A program made the translations under genes and the position numbers. A stretch of DNA of 64,000 nucleotides from Ferroplasma acidiphilum (GTDB taxonomy: Archaea > Thermoplasmatota > Thermoplasmata > Thermoplasmatales > Thermoplasmataceae): positions 744,001 through 808,000 of the forward strand of contig NZ_CP015363.1 in the NCBI RefSeq assembly GCF_002078355.1. The letters run 5' to 3'. Positions within the stretch are counted from its first letter, which is position 1, and each line of letters starts with the position of its first letter. The notes below the pieces were generated by a model that was given only the letters and a program-made list of their open reading frames with translations, did not search any database and was not told where the DNA came from. Positions 9,077 through 17,485 of the stretch are shown in pieces.

Positions 9077-10036
9077 CTACAGGGAAATTCTTCCTGGAAC
9101 CTTTGGAAATGTTGTAACATCCTCTATTTTTTCAACGCCACAGACGAACCTGGTGAACCTTTCTATGCCAATTCCAAATCCGGCTGTATATTTTATGCCC
9201 TGTTTTGCAAGCTCGATAAACCATTTAAACTGCTCCTCTGTCTGCCCTTTCTTCTGGATTCTATCCAGTATCTGTGACAATTCGTATTCCCTTTCACCAC
9301 CGGAAGATGCCTCCTCAAACCCTTCAGGCCATATAAGGTCCATATCTCTCAATATTCCCGGCTTTTCAGGATATTCACGGTCGTAGAATTCCCTCTCTTT
9401 CAATGGGATATCTACAACCCATACAGGCGTGCTGCTCTCCTTTGATAATGGTGTTTCAAATCCTTTTCCATATTTCTTTTCCGCTTCCTCGAATGTTATC
9501 ACAGGGAATGGCTTTGCATAATCTGGCAGTGTTCTGTGGAAGTATTCCAGCTCTTCCTTATGTTCTTTCTTCAACCTTGATATTGTATATATTATCATAT
9601 CCTCTGCAAGTGACATCATCTCCTCTCTTGATTTCTCTAGGGCCTCAACATCAATCTGGGTAAATTCATAGAGGTGCCGCCCGGATTTTGATTTTTCCTC
9701 TGTTTCAAGCCTTACGTTTGGTGACATGATAAAAATTTTTTTAAGTTCCTGGACAGCTATCTGCTTATGGAATATCATGCTCTGGGTAATCCACATATCG
9801 CCGCCGTAAGCATGGATTTTCGGGTCATAAACCGGATGGTTCAGTGGGTCTGTCAATGGAGAAATAATAATCGGTGCAATTTCAATATATCCTGCTTCCC
9901 TCAGGAAATCTGTCACATATGACCGTATATAGCTCTGTACTTTTATTGCATGCTGCACACGCTTATCAGAAAGGTGTTGCATTGATCTTGTAATTTCTTC
10001 CTTTACATACTCTTCATTTTTGTTTATCGTTTCCAT
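9077..10036 (-). CDS. archaeal asparagine synthetase A (AsnRS paralogue)
   Basis: A 319-residue class II synthetase core without an anticodon-binding domain. It resembles the archaeal asparagine synthetase related to AsnRS described in Pyrococcus, which makes asparagine from aspartate, ammonia and ATP. Motif 2 is RLETEEKSKSGRHLYEFTQID and motif 3 is GFGIGIERFTRFVCG. A YGGDMWITQS segment matches the AsnRS amino-acid site. The length (about 300) and the missing OB-fold domain separate it from a tRNA synthetase. It is divergent from the Lrp gene next door, a common arrangement for amino-acid genes and their regulators. Confidence 0.82.
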   Translation of the reverse strand: METINKNEEYVKEEITRSMQHLSDKRVQHAIKVQSYIRSYVTDFLREAGYIEIAPIIISPLTDPLNHPVYDPKIHAYGGDMWITQSMIFHKQIAVQELKKIFIMSPNVRLETEEKSKSGRHLYEFTQIDVEALEKSREEMMSLAEDMIIYTISRLKKEHKEELEYFHRTLPDYAKPFPVITFEEAEKKYGKGFETPLSKESSTPVWVVDIPLKEREFYDREYPEKPGILRDMDLIWPEGFEEASSGGEREYELSQILDRIQKKGQTEEQFKWFIELAKQGIKYTAGFGIGIERFTRFVCGVEKIEDVTTFPKVPGRISL

Positions 10037-10129: not shown

Positions 10130-10573
10130 ATGTTAGAGAATATCGATAAAAAGGACATGAAAATAATTGAATATTTGAAGGAACACGGCAGGGATAAAAG
10201 TTCTGATATTTCCAACGCACTTCAAATTCCCCGTGCTACTATTTTCGAGAGGATGGAACGCCTGAGGAAGGACGGCTTTATTAAAAAGTATACAGTTGAC
10301 CTTAATTATGACAAACTCGGGTATTCTGTTATGTCATATATTATGATACAGTATAACCCCAAAGCATCCATAGACCAGAGGACACTGTGTTTAAATTTAT
10401 CAAAAATGGACAATGTCATATCGGCCTCAATTGTAACCGGTGACTGGGATATAGTGCTGCTTACCGCACAGAAATCAATGAGGGATCTATCAAAATTTGT
10501 GCTTGAACAGCTAAGGACAATGGATGGGATAGAGAAAAGTGTAACCATTCCATTATTCGAAAGGGTATTATAA
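10130..10573 (+). CDS. Lrp/AsnC family transcriptional regulator
   Basis: 147 residues with an N-terminal helix-turn-helix (about 8-55, DKKDMKIIEYLKEHGR...IPRATIFERMERL) and a C-terminal RAM ligand-binding domain (about 65-145). This is the usual feast/famine regulator layout, binding DNA as a dimer or octamer and sensing amino acids. It stands divergently from the asparagine synthetase gene across 93 bases containing a TATA-like TTTTATATACTG near 10100, so control of asnA and of itself is plausible. The tRNA-Ser begins 22 bases after its stop. Confidence 0.9.
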   Translation: MLENIDKKDMKIIEYLKEHGRDKSSDISNALQIPRATIFERMERLRKDGFIKKYTVDLNYDKLGYSVMSYIMIQYNPKASIDQRTLCLNLSKMDNVISASIVTGDWDIVLLTAQKSMRDLSKFVLEQLRTMDGIEKSVTIPLFERVL

Positions 10574-10595: not shown

Positions 10596-10679
10596 GCTGG
10601 GATAGCCTAGCCTGGTAAGACGCAGGTCTGGAAAACCTGTGCACGTAAGTGCCCGGGAGTTCAAATCTCCCTCCCAGCG
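10596..10679 (+). tRNA. tRNA-Ser (anticodon GGA)
   Basis: The acceptor arms GCTGGGA and TCCCAGC pair perfectly. The anticodon stem CAGGT/ACCTG encloses the loop CTGGAAA with anticodon GGA (reads UCC). A long variable arm (TGCAC-GTAA-GTGC) marks a class II tRNA. The T arm is GGGAG-TTCAAAT-CTCCC. The discriminator is G at 10679 and CCA is not encoded. A T5 run at 10681-10685 may serve as terminator. The last 19 bases overlap the 3' end of the convergent helicase-nuclease gene. Confidence 0.95.
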
Positions 10680-13600
10680 CTTTTTGCATTTTCGCCATTT
10701 CCAAGCCTACCAACCGAGTTAATTAAATCATGCAATACTTTTTCAGGGTTTTTCATATAGTCAATAGACCATATACGGTACAGGTTCCATCCCCTGTCTG
10801 TAAGGATTTTCTTCCTTATGCGCTCACGCTCCGATGCGGTTTTCATACTATTGTATATTTTTCCATCCGTCTCTATGCCAAGTATGTAATGGTCCTGATC
10901 ATCCGGGTCTATAATGGCCAGTGGTATATTGTTCCTTGAATAACCTACATTTTTAGCTACTTTGAATCCTTCCTGCTCCAATTTCAATGCAATATCGTTT
11001 ATAATTGCATCATTATTCTTGAATTCTTCAAGATGCTCATTGTTTCCCTCATTTTTTGCATAAATCATGTACTGCTTCAAAAGGTCAGGGCCTTTGCCAG
11101 AATTTGCCGGAACCCTTATATCTTCAGGATCCATGGACGACACAACTATGAATTTTTTCCGTGCCCTTGTTATGGCCACGTTCAGCCGTTTTTCACCCCC
11201 AGTCGTATTGATGGGGCCAAAATTCATTGTTATTTTTCCATTTTCATCCCTTCCATAGCCGGTACTGAGTATAATGACATCCTTTTCATCTCCCTGCACA
11301 TTTTCCAGATTTTTTATGAAAATTGTATCATTATTAAGAAGTTCAGCCAGAACCGGGTCGTGGCGCGAATAGGAATTTAATGTATCCTCCACGGCAACTC
11401 TCTGTGATTCGCTGAGTGTAACGACGCCGATGGAATCTGTATTTGAAAGTTCCTCTTTTATTACCCTTACAACCTCATTCGCCTCGGCTTTGTTTGTCTT
11501 GCTTTTGCCTCTGGTATACACTCCCTCAACCCGGACAAACTGTATTCCAGACTCCTTTGACTTTCTATAGGAAGAAGGAAATGTCTCAAGCAAATTATCA
11601 TAGAAATACCTGTTGGAGAAAGCTATCAAACGGTCATCGACGCTTCTGTAATGCCATTTGAGCCATATTTTGGAGAGCCCTATGGCATCGAACTGGTCAA
11701 GTATATTATCAAGAACCACATAGTCATCTTCATACTTTGATGGATTAACATACTCAAAAAATGTGGTGGGTGGCAACTGCTGCGTATCCCCGGATATTAT
11801 TGCCTGTTTTGCCCTTATGAGGGAACCAACAGCATCCGGCGGGGTGAGCTGGGATGCTTCGTCAAATATAAGCAAATCAAAGCTCGCATCATTTTCCAGA
11901 TAAGCAGCAACATTATCCGGGCTCATCATAATGCATGGCTTCAATCCGGGCAGTATATCTTTTAATTCCGAAAATAAAACTTTTAACGGTTTTTGAAGCC
12001 TTTTTTTGGCATTTTCAGTTTTGATCACCATGGCTGACCCCGGATATCTGGAAAGTGCTTCTTTCCTCCGGGCTGATAACTCAACAACAAGGTTTGCACT
12101 GTTTATTTCTATTCTCTTCCGATCAAAATCTATAAACATGCCTATGAGCCTTTCGTGTGAAGATGCTCTGAAATTCTTTAATTCGGGATCATTTCTTACA
12201 TAATAGGTGGCGAATTCATGGTTAAAAATGTACCTGAAGGAATGGAGAATAGAATTCATGTGCACCCTTGTATTTAAAAGTGGGGCAATATCAATTCCGG
12301 AAGTTTTTACCCCCTCGTATAGTTCCCTGAATTTAACATACCTGTCAATATCAAAGGAGGAAGCCGCATCAATTGCCTGCCGCATCTGTTCCATGGTGGC
12401 TGTGTTTAATCCACTGTAGGACGGGAATATATCCGAGAGGTAATTTATTCCATCTATGAGTGAGCTGTGAATTGATTTTATGTCCTCAATATATTCTGGG
12501 TCAACAGGATGGGATATAAGCTCTCTCAGGCCATCCTTCAATGCATTTTCCGGAAATATTGAAATTAATTTTCTGGCATACCTTATTTTTTCTGATACAT
12601 TGGAAGCGCCAATATCTCTGGACGAAATTTCTTTTTCTACAACGGAGAGTTCATCCTGTTTTGCCTTTATTTTTAATGCAAATGTAATGTCTTCCAATAT
12701 CTCTTCGTATTGTTTCCTGGACTTGTCCTCTGTATTTTCCATGATTTCATTCAGGAGTTTTTTGTATTCTCCTGAATGTCTTTTCCATCTTGATGAATAG
12801 GTTTCCTCCATGTCCTTCCTGATGGAATTCAGGTTCATGTCCAGAAATTGCTTTTTCCTTTTTTTCAGGAATATCCCCATCATGTAATCCAGTTCAGACC
12901 TGATTTTTTCCCCGGAATCCAGCAAGGCAGCAGTTTCTTTAATGAAATCCGGGTTCGTATATGCTTCATCCAGGGTTATTCCAGCGTTAAGGACATTTAC
13001 GAATCTGTATAGCATATTGATATCTTCCATTGACTGTATATCTACCCCAGTTGTGGTGAGTATAGCTGGAGCTATTTCTTCAATTCGATCCAGCGCGTTC
13101 TGAATTAACTCCAATCCTCTGTAGTAATGCTCGGGGTCTTCACGGTATCTGTCAAGCCTGAAATTCTCAGGTATCTTGCCATAATTTTCTATGATGTCAA
13201 GGTAATCGTTGAATTCGGAAATTTGGAACTCGAGGGAATCAAGTTCTTCACCTGTAAGGTCAAGAAGGCGCCTGTCTATTTTTATATCCAGATTTCCCTT
13301 ATTTTTGAGCTCTATCTGGCATGCGTCATAGATGGACCGCCCGAGCTTTCCTCTTTTTTCATGTATTGCACGTACATAGGAATTCAGTGTTCCTGAATAC
13401 CTGTCTGTTGGCACAAGGGTTCTCTGGGCATGTGTGTCATTTTCCACCGAACGGTGAAGTGATTTAATTATTTCGGATTTAGGGGTATTTCCATGAAAAT
13501 TTAAAATGAAATCCCCCAGGCCAACCTCTTCCAGCCTCCTTTTTACCACTTCAATAGCTGCATTTTTCTCACTAACAAATAATACGCTTTTATTATTTTT

Positions 13601-14485
13601 CATTGAATCCGCTATGATATTCGCAATGGTCTGGCTCTTGCCTGTTCCAGGAGGGCCGTTAAGAATAAAACTCGAGCCGCTTCTGGCTGCATATATAGCC
13701 ATAAGCTGGCTTGAATCGGCATCCATAACTGTATTGATATTATAATCTATTTCAGCCGGCATTTTATCGTTAAGTTTCTTAATTACCTCAAAGTCCCCGG
13801 CGAGTGCTCTTGTCAGGTCGTTCTTTTTTATTGCGTCGTGGTTTCCTTTAATATCATTATAAATGGTGTTATTTGTGAATGAGACTATACCAAGATAGGA
13901 ATTCCTCCCAACTGTCCATTTAGAATCCTTTACCGTGAGCCTGAAAGTTTTGATTGCTTCAGACAGGTTAAGGTTATCATCAAAGTTGAAATCAAACTTT
14001 ATACCGAACTGTTCCAGTTTTTCCCTGAGAACCGGATTAAAAAATATATCGCCTTCCATGGATTCTATTGAATAGTTATTATACATTTTCCTGTTAAGCG
14101 TGACAGGGACAAAGAAAAGCTGTGTTTCCACCTCTTTACCATTTTCATCGCTCCATTTGAGGACACCGAATGATATATACAGTACATTTGAACCGTGTTC
14201 CTTTAATGACGCATTAGCCTGGTAAAACAAATTACCTAAAGATTTCGATATATCTTCATTCTTCGAAAATATGAGCTCGTCTTTCTTCCTGTTTTCCTCT
14301 GCGCCTGAGAGGTGTATTTTCATTTTTTTGTCCTTGTTAACAAGGTCATCAAAGAGGAATAACATTGATGGCGTAGTTATTTTAAGAAATGATTCTGGAT
14401 TAAAATAAAGCAGCCTGTTGTTTTTTGATGTGTCTATAACATCTTTTTCCCATTTTTTAATACTCTCGTCTATATCTATATCCAT
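10661..14485 (-). CDS. DUF4011-like SF1 helicase fused to a PD-(D/E)XK/Vsr-like nuclease; candidate defence protein
   Basis: A 1274-residue single-gene system. The N terminus (about 5-250) looks like a DUF4011-type domain. The helicase core has Walker A GPPGTGKS (277-284), a long helical insertion of almost 600 residues, Walker B FDEAS (about 874), SGDTQQLPP, WHYRS, a VQGDEKDVIILS block and the motif VI-like AITRARKK (about 1105). The C terminus (about 1165-1260) resembles a Vsr/MTES_1575-type endonuclease, with GIETDG near 1205 and an R-I-W strand. From memory, helicases of this architecture are reported as phage-defence genes (called Hhe in some collections); here a terminal DUF3320 domain is not evident. 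The stop codon lies inside the tRNA-Ser. It is transcribed alone. Confidence 0.8.
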   Translation of the reverse strand: MDIDIDESIKKWEKDVIDTSKNNRLLYFNPESFLKITTPSMLFLFDDLVNKDKKMKIHLSGAEENRKKDELIFSKNEDISKSLGNLFYQANASLKEHGSNVLYISFGVLKWSDENGKEVETQLFFVPVTLNRKMYNNYSIESMEGDIFFNPVLREKLEQFGIKFDFNFDDNLNLSEAIKTFRLTVKDSKWTVGRNSYLGIVSFTNNTIYNDIKGNHDAIKKNDLTRALAGDFEVIKKLNDKMPAEIDYNINTVMDADSSQLMAIYAARSGSSFILNGPPGTGKSQTIANIIADSMKNNKSVLFVSEKNAAIEVVKRRLEEVGLGDFILNFHGNTPKSEIIKSLHRSVENDTHAQRTLVPTDRYSGTLNSYVRAIHEKRGKLGRSIYDACQIELKNKGNLDIKIDRRLLDLTGEELDSLEFQISEFNDYLDIIENYGKIPENFRLDRYREDPEHYYRGLELIQNALDRIEEIAPAILTTTGVDIQSMEDINMLYRFVNVLNAGITLDEAYTNPDFIKETAALLDSGEKIRSELDYMMGIFLKKRKKQFLDMNLNSIRKDMEETYSSRWKRHSGEYKKLLNEIMENTEDKSRKQYEEILEDITFALKIKAKQDELSVVEKEISSRDIGASNVSEKIRYARKLISIFPENALKDGLRELISHPVDPEYIEDIKSIHSSLIDGINYLSDIFPSYSGLNTATMEQMRQAIDAASSFDIDRYVKFRELYEGVKTSGIDIAPLLNTRVHMNSILHSFRYIFNHEFATYYVRNDPELKNFRASSHERLIGMFIDFDRKRIEINSANLVVELSARRKEALSRYPGSAMVIKTENAKKRLQKPLKVLFSELKDILPGLKPCIMMSPDNVAAYLENDASFDLLIFDEASQLTPPDAVGSLIRAKQAIISGDTQQLPPTTFFEYVNPSKYEDDYVVLDNILDQFDAIGLSKIWLKWHYRSVDDRLIAFSNRYFYDNLLETFPSSYRKSKESGIQFVRVEGVYTRGKSKTNKAEANEVVRVIKEELSNTDSIGVVTLSESQRVAVEDTLNSYSRHDPVLAELLNNDTIFIKNLENVQGDEKDVIILSTGYGRDENGKITMNFGPINTTGGEKRLNVAITRARKKFIVVSSMDPEDIRVPANSGKGPDLLKQYMIYAKNEGNNEHLEEFKNNDAIINDIALKLEQEGFKVAKNVGYSRNNIPLAIIDPDDQDHYILGIETDGKIYNSMKTASERERIRKKILTDRGWNLYRIWSIDYMKNPEKVLHDLINSVGRLGNGENAKSAGREI

Positions 14486-14797: not shown

Positions 14798-16033
14798 TCA
14801 GGCTTCCGGATAATCTATATTGACCTTAGCCGTCTCAATTCCATAGTGGTGCCATACTATAGCTGCTATGAATCCAAGTAGCCACAGGCCTACATTTATG
14901 ATTATAAACACTCTAATTGAGACATTGCTTGTAAGATACACAAGCAAGGGATATACAATCATAGGTGCAAGCCTTACGGTACCCATAAAAATTCCACGTA
15001 TCCGTGTTGGCGAGAGTTCTGGCTCCAGGGTAGTTCTTGAAGCCCAGGCAAATTCACTCATCATCATATTAAAAAACAGAAGCGGGTAGAATATCAAAAC
15101 GTTATTGAGAAGTGGAATAACGAGGAAAATAGCAACAGTTGATATAAACCCAAGCCCGTATGAATATAATGTGTATTTTTTCCTTCCCCTTGTGATAAGC
15201 GGTGCAGCAATAAATCCTGCAACAGAGGCACCTAGAAGTGCAACGAATATAATCATGTCGTCCGTAAAAACTCCGGGGAATTCATACGGCCCTATTATAT
15301 ATGCCATAAGCCCGAACGTTGTATACTGTGAGATTGCCATAGCCATAAGCACGGAAAGGGTCAATGTGTAGGATGGTTTTTTAACAGTTTCCCCGGCAGA
15401 ATCTATATAAAGGCTGGATCTGGTTTTTATTGAATTTTCGACTTTTCCATGGATATTTTCCCATTTGAACGATTCCGGCAAGGATAGCCGGGAAAATATC
15501 ATTACAATAATCAGAAAAGATGCCGCTAAAAGCAGTACAACCCTATCTGCAAAGGAAGTTACCAGAACCAGGAAAAGCCCTGCAATTATGGCACTTCCAA
15601 TATTGTCAAAATCAGATATTATTGTTAGCCATTTTGCTCTCTGGGATATTGGGGAATCCTCAGAAACGAGGGAAAGGGAAGGAATTTCTTCTCCACCAAC
15701 CCCGAATTCAGCAAGCATAAGCCCTATAATAAGAGGGATAAATGTATAGCTTAAAGATATTATTACAATGCCGATGCCATACATAATCATGGTGATTAAA
15801 AAAATCTTCTTTCTTCCAATACGATCTGTGAGTATCCCCATTGTAAAGTTTCCGAAGGGCACAAACAATGGGCCTATGAGAAGAACAAGAACCTTATAAC
15901 TATGTGGAAGAACACCTATGATGGAACCAGCCGCAGCCAGTGGCCCCAATGTAGCGACTATGCCCCAGAAAGTAAGTCCGGATGCGCTTGACATTAACAT
16001 GAAGCGCTGCTTCGAACTTAGCGTATTATACAC
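14798..16033 (-). CDS. MFS transporter under TPP riboswitch control (putative thiamine or precursor uptake)
   Basis: A 411-residue, roughly 12-helix major facilitator. The cytoplasmic loop motif GILTDRIGRKK lies between helices 2 and 3, and a second related loop (RGRKKYTLY) lies in the middle, as in sugar and organic-acid porters. Its substrate is suggested by the TPP riboswitch just upstream (16064-16140): genes under such control move or make thiamine or its pyrimidine precursor. From memory, TPP elements upstream of transporters were noted in Thermoplasma. The start is GTG at 16033; the upstream ATG frame stops at once, and an internal ATG 11 codons later is an alternative. It is related to the MFS at 45126, which shows no riboswitch. 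Confidence 0.82.
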   Translation of the reverse strand: MYNTLSSKQRFMLMSSASGLTFWGIVATLGPLAAAGSIIGVLPHSYKVLVLLIGPLFVPFGNFTMGILTDRIGRKKIFLITMIMYGIGIVIISLSYTFIPLIIGLMLAEFGVGGEEIPSLSLVSEDSPISQRAKWLTIISDFDNIGSAIIAGLFLVLVTSFADRVVLLLAASFLIIVMIFSRLSLPESFKWENIHGKVENSIKTRSSLYIDSAGETVKKPSYTLTLSVLMAMAISQYTTFGLMAYIIGPYEFPGVFTDDMIIFVALLGASVAGFIAAPLITRGRKKYTLYSYGLGFISTVAIFLVIPLLNNVLIFYPLLFFNMMMSEFAWASRTTLEPELSPTRIRGIFMGTVRLAPMIVYPLLVYLTSNVSIRVFIIINVGLWLLGFIAAIVWHHYGIETAKVNIDYPEA

Positions 16034-16342: not shown

Positions 16343-17209
16343 ATGGAAAATACACATATAAACATATCGGCTCTTGATAATGTAGATATAGATAAAATAC
16401 TGAAGCAAACAATAAAAGAGAAAATAGAGAAATTAATGGAAATAGAGTTAAATGCATATTTAGAGGAGAATCCAGGAGTAAAGAATGGAAAATATAAGAG
16501 AGACCTAAAAACAAAGTATGGTGAAATAAAACAATTAAATATCCCAAGGGACAGGGATAGCAATTTCCATACACAGGTAATAGAACCATATAACAGGTCT
16601 ATAGGAATGGAAGATCTTATAGTATCAATGTATTCCAATGGCATATCTACAAGGAGAATAGCAGGTATACTTGAAGATATTTTAGGAAATAAATATTCTA
16701 AATCCACAGTATCAAGAATAACAGATTTAACCATGGAAGAGGTTTATAAGTTTATTAACAGGCCACTGGATAAAAGGTATATAGCAGTATTTTTAGATGG
16801 TTTATTCTTCTATTTAAGAAGGGGGAATGTAGATAAAGAACCCGTAATATTTGCATTAGGAATTAAAGAAACAGGAGAGTATGAGTTATTAGGATTCTAT
16901 TTAACAGTTAAAGAATCACATAATGCATATAAGGATGTACTGGAAGACCTCTATAATAGAGGATTAAAGGAGCCATTGTTAATTGTAGCAGATGGAATAA
17001 AGAATTTAGATGAAGAAGTAATGGAAATATATCCCGGATCAGAGTTCCAGCTATGTACAATACACTATGCAAGAGGATTAAAATCCAATGTAAGGGAGAA
17101 AGATATTGAGGAAATAACTATAGACGCAAATAAGATGTTTAAATGTGATAATAAGGAAGAAGCTATAATAAGATTCAATGATTTTAAATACAAATGGGAG
17201 AATAAGTAT
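16343..17209 (+). pseudogene. IS256/mutator-type transposase, truncated
   Basis: The first 289 residues align with the complete transposase at 62000-63160, nearly identical after about residue 45 and more diverged before it. The DDE residues D152 (FLDGLFF) and D217 (VADGIK) are present, but the third, the glutamate of NAIERFNG, is lost. After the AAGTAT at 17209 the reading frame runs into unrelated sequence and stops at 17329, giving about 40 foreign residues. It is therefore a dead gene. A GGGAGG ribosome site lies 7 bases before the ATG in both copies. Confidence 0.9.
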
Positions 17210-17210
17210 A

Positions 17211-17485
17211 GTGCGCCCCACTTACATTTGGACACTTTGAATGATATAGTTAGATTAATGAAATCCTTTATTTTACTATATCTACATAGGCAAACACTAT
17301 CATCATATTTTTGCAGTATATCCTTGTGATTTTTACTGGGTTGCCAGATATTTTAAGTTCCTAGAATGGTTAACCTGCATATTCTATATATGGCAATAAT
17401 CATTAATATAGCAGACTCTTAGGATATTGTCATATCTTTATATATTCTCAATGATAACTGTCCTAAATTAAGTGGTGCAGATCAC
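17211..17485. repeat. MITE-like insertion with inverted ends inside the IS256 copy
   Basis: The left edge reads GTGCGCCCCACTTACATTTG then GACAC. The right edge reads CTGTCCTAAATTAAGTGGTG then CAGATCAC. Reverse-complementing the left edge gives GTGTCCAAATGTAAGTGG, which matches the right edge with small gaps. The interior is A+T-rich with no convincing open frame. It looks like a small non-autonomous element or the remains of a second IS. The host transposase tail is missing, so insertion came with, or was followed by, an adjacent deletion. The boundaries are good to a few bases. Confidence 0.55.

What the first reader, a model, noticed from the sequence alone, without database searches (positions are those of the whole stretch)
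10596..14485. One-gene helicase-nuclease, a candidate defence system, inserted against and into a tRNA-Ser gene
A 1274-residue protein joins a DUF4011-like N-terminus, an SF1 helicase with a huge insertion between motifs I and II, and a Vsr/PD-(D/E)XK-like nuclease. Its last codons and stop lie within the T arm and acceptor of tRNA-Ser(GGA) on the other strand. tRNA 3' ends are classic integration sites in archaea, so the gene may have arrived by integration and captured its 3' end from the tRNA. Convergent overlap could also couple its expression to that of the tRNA.
Basis: partly seen in the sequence, partly recalled or inferred. Interest (0 to 1): 0.72.

Follow-up and report, generated by a model that had tools for sequence, protein, structure and literature searches.

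The report
Defence-type helicase with a disarmed nuclease
A large archaeal protein that looks like a one-gene antiviral helicase-nuclease has been inherited for a long time next to a tRNA gene, has lost the key acidic residue of its nuclease yet is still strictly preserved by selection, and shows no sign of being a recent arrival in the tRNA; it is probably a defence-family protein put to a non-cutting use.

Summary
In detail: a 1274-residue DUF4011, SF1 helicase and Vsr-like protein (10661-14485, minus strand) overlaps tRNA-Ser(GGA) (10596-10680, plus strand) by 20 nt, and its TGA stop lies in the antisense T-loop.

(1) Every sufficiently complete genome of the genus carries the gene at this tRNA with the same ending (SAGREI-stop) and neighbours. 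There is no far-side tRNA repeat, no integrase within about 128 kb, and no viral relative was found. (2) hemD in the same genome ends 19 nt inside tRNA-Met; antisense T-loops supply TGA in 18 of 31 tRNAs. The overlap is ordinary. (3) The Vsr-fold domain has lost its metal-binding Asp: Pro or Ala in all 11 distinct sequences of this clade, Asp in all 98 other homologues. The change happened once, before the gene met the tRNA.

The domain is nevertheless under strong purifying selection (dN/dS about 0.02-0.13), and the helicase motifs are intact. Best reading: a vertically inherited member of the PDC-S37 / ProA / Hhe defence-associated family acting as an ATP-driven translocase with a non-cutting, nucleic-acid-binding Vsr domain. 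Function is inferred, not shown.

The parts
10661..14485 (-). DUF4011 - SF1 (Upf1-like) helicase - Vsr-like domain protein, 1274 aa, PDC-S37/ProA/Hhe family
10596..10680 (+). tRNA-Ser(GGA), complete
10661..10680 (.). 20-nt convergent overlap; ORF stop TGA at 10661-10663 is antisense T-loop, residues AGREI are antisense T arm/acceptor
   Evidence: identical ending in all 7 genus genomes with the junction and in G254
14015..14437 (-). DUF4011 (PF13195), residues 17-157
13634..13657 (-). Walker A GPPGTGKS, residues 277-284, invariant
11966..13498 (-). helical insertion between motifs I and II, residues ~330-840, least constrained part
11132..11881 (-). helicase motifs II (DEAS) to VI, residues 869-1118, intact and the most constrained part
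10718..10996 (-). Vsr/MTES_1575-type nuclease-fold domain, residues 1164-1256
10922..10924 (-). codon 1188 (CCA, Pro) where 98 other homologues have the catalytic Asp (Vsr D51 position)
10130..10573 (+). Lrp/AsnC regulator, ancestral left neighbour of tRNA-Ser(gga) in the family
9077..10036 (-). asparaginyl-tRNA-synthetase-like gene (name from reading the sequence, not scanned), ancestral left neighbour
14798..16033 (-). MFS transporter, conserved right neighbour in the genus

Best explanation
This is a chromosomally fixed, vertically inherited member of the DUF4011-SF1 helicase-Vsr defence-associated family (PADLOC PDC-S37; NCBIfam ProA/Hhe-like) whose Vsr-type nuclease lost its metal-binding Asp once, in the common ancestor of three related genera. 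Shown by sequence: intact helicase motifs, the lost catalytic Asp, strong purifying selection on the remaining domain, vertical inheritance at one site, and a tRNA overlap that arose after the nuclease was disarmed. Inferred: the protein works as an ATP-driven Upf1-like translocase that loads on single-stranded or branched nucleic acid, and its Vsr-fold domain binds or clamps nucleic acid without cutting it, as the Vsr-like FASTKD4 is reported to do with RNA. Whether it still serves antiviral defence (by displacing or stalling, or by recruiting a separate nuclease) or a housekeeping role is open; its setting among metabolic genes favours a domesticated core role. The 3'-end overlap with the tRNA is a by-product: a convergent gene running into a tRNA meets a ready-made TGA in the antisense T-loop.
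For: Vertical inheritance: all 7 genus genomes with an intact junction have the gene against tRNA-Ser(gga), with the same order asnS-Lrp-tRNA | helicase-MFS; the gene tree has 100% SH-aLRT support for the 12-member clade and follows the genera. Lost Asp: P or A in 11 of 11 distinct clade sequences, D in 98 of 98 others; one change on the tree. Two other active-site features are also changed: N-helix Glu to Ile, and YH to YN/YA/YY/YS. The fold is still Vsr/DUF559-like: 3hrl prob 1.00, RAP-domain proteins prob 0.99, I-Bth0305I prob 0.96; the family profile aligns the lost position to the D of 3hrl YIVDF. Selection: dN/dS 0.04-0.09 for the whole gene and 0.02-0.13 for the nuclease domain in close pairs. 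No paralogue of the domain elsewhere in the genome. Precedent for a non-cutting Vsr-like domain: FASTKD4 (PMC11879112). Ordinary overlap: hemD ends 19 nt inside tRNA-Met; 18 of 31 tRNAs offer antisense T-loop TGA.
Against: Loss of one metal ligand does not prove loss of all activity: E1205 and D1207 (GIETDG) and the SERER motif are kept, and N1186, two residues along the same strand, might substitute. The setting is not a defence island, but a single-gene defence system need not be in one. ATPase, binding and antiviral activity are all untested. The sampled family (109 distinct domains) is a selection by similarity, so other D-less members may exist.
Confidence: 0.66

Rival explanations
1. Active one-gene antiviral helicase-nuclease brought in by a mobile element that integrated at the 3' end of tRNA-Ser.
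For: Family of known defence association; relatives on haloarchaeal and Klebsiella plasmids; 13 sister genera have the same tRNA without the gene, and the tRNA's 3' flank differs between most of them.
Against: Same site in all congeners; no far-side copy of the tRNA end, the only other copies being the isoacceptor tRNA-Ser(cga); no integrase within about 128 kb; no viral relative in a scan limited to two peptide patterns; in the basal genus the gene is not at tRNA-Ser; catalytic Asp missing; none of the 79 distant homologues checked overlaps a tRNA.
Confidence: 0.08
2. Still a defence protein, but nuclease-independent: the helicase senses or strips invading DNA and the disarmed Vsr domain anchors it or recruits another host nuclease.
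For: Family membership, intact helicase, strictly conserved disarmed domain; the E of the ExDG motif is lost about 7 times elsewhere in the family while the rest is kept, so members without a complete site are common.
Against: No defence genes beside it in three genera; no candidate partner nuclease identified.
Confidence: 0.35
3. The nuclease is still active with a remodelled metal site using E1205, D1207 and possibly N1186 or E1219.
For: GIETDG and SERER-type motifs are conserved in the clade and the domain is under purifying selection.
Against: Asp is the most conserved catalytic position of the family (98 of 98) and Pro or Ala cannot bind metal; the N-helix Glu and the His are gone too.
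Confidence: 0.15
4. On the origin of the junction only: the gene reached tRNA-Ser by homologous rearrangement between the two tRNA-Ser genes, which share an identical 20-nt 3' end (30 nt with at most one mismatch), not by site-specific integration.
For: In genus g29 the downstream flanks of tRNA-Ser(gga) and tRNA-Ser(cga) are exchanged between species: G254 has gga|helicase and cga|F32-F33, G243 and G352 have gga|F32-F33 and the helicase about 2 kb from cga. The shared 3' ends are seen.
Against: Draft assemblies; the breakpoints in G243/G352 have extra genes between tRNA and helicase, so the crossover itself is not seen.
Confidence: 0.35

Closest known systems
PDC-S37 (PADLOC phage-defence candidate, single gene)
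   Same: Profile covered end to end, E 9e-283; same order of DUF4011, SF1 helicase with long insertion, Vsr-like domain
   Different: Catalytic Asp of the nuclease replaced by Pro or Ala, among the sequences sampled in this clade only; set among metabolic genes
Anti-phage protein ProA (NCBIfam NF058533)
   Same: 937 bits over residues 9-1269
   Different: Below the curated cut-off of 1500 bits; about 600 residues shorter than the model; disarmed nuclease
Hhe (NCBIfam NF042953, PADLOC Hhe; DUF4011 anti-phage protein)
   Same: Helicase C-terminal half and nuclease fold align (623 bits)
   Different: Far below the cut-off of 2000 bits; shorter; disarmed nuclease
Upf1 / Sen1 / Ighmbp2 / Dna2 SF1B helicases
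   Same: Helicase core fold, prob 1.00 to 2wjv, 8ftm, 4b3g, 5eaw
   Different: DUF4011 N-terminus, much longer helical insertion, C-terminal Vsr-like domain
RAP domain / FASTKD4 (Vsr-like fold reported to lack nuclease activity)
   Same: Same superfamily fold as the C-terminal domain; a Vsr-like domain that binds nucleic acid without cutting (PMC11879112)
   Different: FASTKD4 keeps the Asp; mitochondrial RNA-binding protein with no helicase

Membership tests
DUF4011-helicase-Vsr family (PDC-S37) | full-length profile match | tested here: met
   PDLC05009 9e-283, residues 2-1263 to 2-1343/1550
DUF4011-helicase-Vsr family (PDC-S37) | intact SF1 helicase motifs I-VI | tested here: met
   GPPGTGKSQT, FDEAS, GDTQQLPPT, VQGDE, RLNVAITRAR conserved
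DUF4011-helicase-Vsr family (PDC-S37) | complete Vsr/PD-(D/E)XK active site (a trait of most members, not part of the profile definition) | tested here: not met
   position 1188 is P or A in all clade members, D in 98 of 98 others
Anti-phage ProA (NF058533) | score above curated cut-off | tested here: not met
   937 of 1500 bits
Hhe (NF042953) | score above curated cut-off | tested here: not met
   623 of 2000 bits
Anti-phage / antiviral system | protects a host against a virus | not testable with these tools
   needs a challenge experiment
Anti-phage / antiviral system | co-localises with defence genes | tested here: not met
   neighbours are Lrp, asnS-like, MFS and cobalamin genes in g1; CobN/ChlI and pyrD in g28
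tRNA-integrated mobile element | duplicated tRNA 3' end on the far side | tested here: not met
   single copy in the window with up to 3 mismatches; other copies are tRNA-Ser(cga)
tRNA-integrated mobile element | integrase in or next to the element | tested here: not met
   nearest integrase about 128 kb away; others lie by tRNAs at 218 kb and 626 kb
tRNA-integrated mobile element | presence/absence among close relatives | tested here: not met
   present in all congeners except one 80%-complete draft that also lacks the tRNA
tRNA-integrated mobile element | empty orthologous site in more distant relatives | tested here: met
   13 sister genera have the tRNA without the gene; Lrp beside tRNA-Ser(gga) in 6 of these

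The most novel reading that the evidence does not exclude
A defence helicase-nuclease was domesticated in one archaeal lineage by losing the most conserved catalytic residue of its nuclease, while the disarmed domain and the helicase stayed under strong selection: a core, non-cutting nucleic-acid remodelling enzyme derived from an immune effector.
Probability: 0.4. Interest if true: 0.62.

Novelty: new variant of a known kind. Interest (0 to 1): 0.42.

Why it matters
If the domain is really non-cutting, the natural D-to-A/P change, fixed and conserved across three genera, is a ready test of whether this widespread helicase family needs cleavage for its function. It also warns that defence-finding tools will call this protein an antiviral nuclease system from profile score alone. 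The tRNA part is a caution: a gene ending inside a tRNA is not by itself evidence of integration, because antisense T-loops often contain TGA.

Tried and rejected
Integration at the tRNA: searched for a second tRNA 3' end, integrases, viral relatives and tRNA adjacency in 79 distant homologues; none supported it. tRNA overlap as something unusual: rejected after finding hemD 19 nt inside tRNA-Met and PCNA ending just past tRNA-Arg in the same genome. An active paralogue of the nuclease domain elsewhere in the genome: none. The idea that the disarmed domain is decaying: rejected by dN/dS. Literature for ProA, Hhe and DUF4011 gave little: DUF4011 occurs in only three held papers; one reports a DUF4011 gene as a core gene flanking a Pseudomonas aeruginosa defence hotspot (PMC10250203); PDC-S37 is not named in the archaeal survey PMC12988326. 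First family scans of neighbours failed on a wrong frame and were repeated.
Full report
Observation. The ORF (10661-14485, minus, 1274 aa) and tRNA-Ser(GGA) (10596-10680, plus) are both present and overlap by 20 nt. The stop codon is the antisense of the T-loop TCA, and the residues AGREI are antisense acceptor and T arm. Pfam finds DUF4011, AAA_11, AAA_12 and MTES_1575. PADLOC assigns PDC-S37 at 9e-283 and Hhe at 5.7e-129. NCBIfam finds anti-phage ProA (937 bits, cut-off 1500) and Hhe (623 bits, cut-off 2000). The genome is one contig of 1,826,943 bases; from memory this size fits Ferroplasma acidiphilum, which I did not verify.

Is it a recent arrival? No. Among nine genomes of the genus in the first comparison (the window's own included), eight have the gene. 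In one of these (G008) it is cut by a contig end; the ninth (G001) is a draft 80% complete that also lacks the tRNA. In all seven genomes with the junction assembled, tRNA-Ser(gga) overlaps the gene in the same way and the protein ends SAGREI. A second genome of the same species is 99.9% identical in the protein and has the same arrangement. Gene order asnS-Lrp-tRNA | helicase-MFS is shared throughout the genus, usually followed by cobalamin genes. Protein identities (58-70%) rank the species as the neighbours do, and the gene tree is consistent.

What lies at this tRNA in other genera? The left side (F7-F4-F5-F1-tRNA-Ser(cga)-asnS-Lrp-tRNA-Ser(gga), in whole or part) is conserved widely in the family, while the gene on the 3' side of tRNA-Ser(gga) differs between nearly all genera. 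So the boundary is variable and the site is empty in 13 sister genera, which keeps an ancient arrival possible. In genus g28 (G085) the helicase gene (43% identical) lies elsewhere, between CobN/ChlI and dihydroorotate dehydrogenase genes. In genus g29, G254 has the same tRNA overlap and the same SAGREI end, whereas G243 and G352 have the helicase detached with its own tail (SKKIVG, SKKIAE). In these species the downstream flanks of tRNA-Ser(gga) and tRNA-Ser(cga) appear exchanged. In the genus the two tRNAs share an identical 20-nt 3' end, and 30 nt with at most one mismatch. The simplest history is that the tRNA junction arose in the ancestor of g1 and g29 by rearrangement and was lost in part of g29; this is inference from draft genomes.

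Marks of integration. The tRNA 3' end occurs once in the window, and in relatives its only other copies are the isoacceptor tRNA. The five integrase matches in the genome lie at 217, 250, 620 and 626 kb; two of these places are beside tRNAs (218412 and 626445), which is what tRNA-linked elements would look like here. None is within about 128 kb of this locus. A viral scan found no relative, though it rested on only two peptide patterns. None of 79 distant homologues overlaps a tRNA; the nearest convergent tRNA is 90 nt away.

Is the overlap special? No. hemD (PF02602) ends 19 nt inside tRNA-Met, and a gene read as PCNA ends just past tRNA-Arg in the same genome. The antisense T-loop gives TGA in 18 of 31 tRNAs examined. 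A convergent gene that reaches a tRNA is therefore often stopped there. The last residues of the protein are predicted with very low confidence, as if disordered.

The nuclease. In the C-terminal domain the family motif is YRIDLAV...LGIECDG. In every clade member (genera g1, g28, g29) the Asp is Pro or Ala (NNI[PA]LAV), while all 98 other distinct domains sampled have Asp. One change on helicase-only trees explains this. The N-helix Glu and the His after the Tyr are also changed. By contrast, the Glu of ExDG is kept in this clade but lost about seven times elsewhere; no sequence sampled has lost both. The model of the domain (mean pLDDT 84) has the expected fold; Foldseek's best matches are the endonuclease-like protein 3hrl, RAP-domain proteins and the Vsr-like I-Bth0305I, and the sequence profile aligns the lost position to the Asp of 3hrl. 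Foldseek E-values are above 0.001, so the fold assignment rests on these together with Pfam. Asp 51 belongs to the active site of Vsr, and a Vsr-like protein without nuclease activity, FASTKD4, is reported to act by binding RNA (PMC11879112).

Is the disarmed domain decaying? No. For close species pairs dN/dS is 0.04-0.09 for the gene, 0.01-0.03 for the motif II-VI region and 0.02-0.13 for the nuclease domain; the helical insertion is among the least constrained parts. The helicase motifs are intact, and the helicase core matches Upf1, Sen1, Ighmbp2 and Dna2.

Mechanism. Shown: intact SF1 helicase motifs, disarmed Vsr fold under selection, vertical inheritance, no defence neighbours. Inferred: ATP-driven movement on nucleic acid with a non-cutting clamp or recognition domain. 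Defence without cleavage and a domesticated core role are both possible; I favour the second slightly because of its fixed setting among metabolic genes. A remodelled but active metal site is not excluded.

Verdict. The integration story is not supported, and the defence-nuclease story is weakened by the missing Asp. The gene is a new variant of a known family.

Noticed in passing
L143 (tRNA-Met at G000:C1:156607-156681): hemD ends 19 nt inside tRNA-Met on the opposite strand, the same arrangement as the finding.
   Followed up: partly
L148 (tRNA-Arg at G000:C1:393697-393771): A gene read as PCNA ends just past the 3' end of a convergent tRNA-Arg(cct).
   Followed up: no
L100, L124 versus L097, L098, L121, L122 (genus g29): The genes downstream of tRNA-Ser(gga) and tRNA-Ser(cga) are exchanged between species, suggesting recombination between isoacceptor tRNAs with a shared 3' end.
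   Followed up: partly
L084, L088-L092 and many f8-family hits: Relatives in another family of the class keep the catalytic Asp but have lost the Glu of ExDG (GILSDG, GIMTDG): another group with a likely incomplete nuclease site.
   Followed up: partly
G000:C1:625890-626355 and 217500-217991: Integrase genes beside tRNA genes (the first in two pieces with a stop): likely tRNA-integrated elements in this genome.
   Followed up: no
window 16343-17329: Transposase-like ORF (read as IS256-like) beside the MFS gene, found only in the two genomes of this species among those compared.
   Followed up: no
L128 and L129 (G231, genus g15): Two contigs each carry tRNA-Ser(cga)-Lrp-tRNA-Ser(gga) followed by the same five gene families: a duplication or two strains in one assembly.
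   Followed up: no
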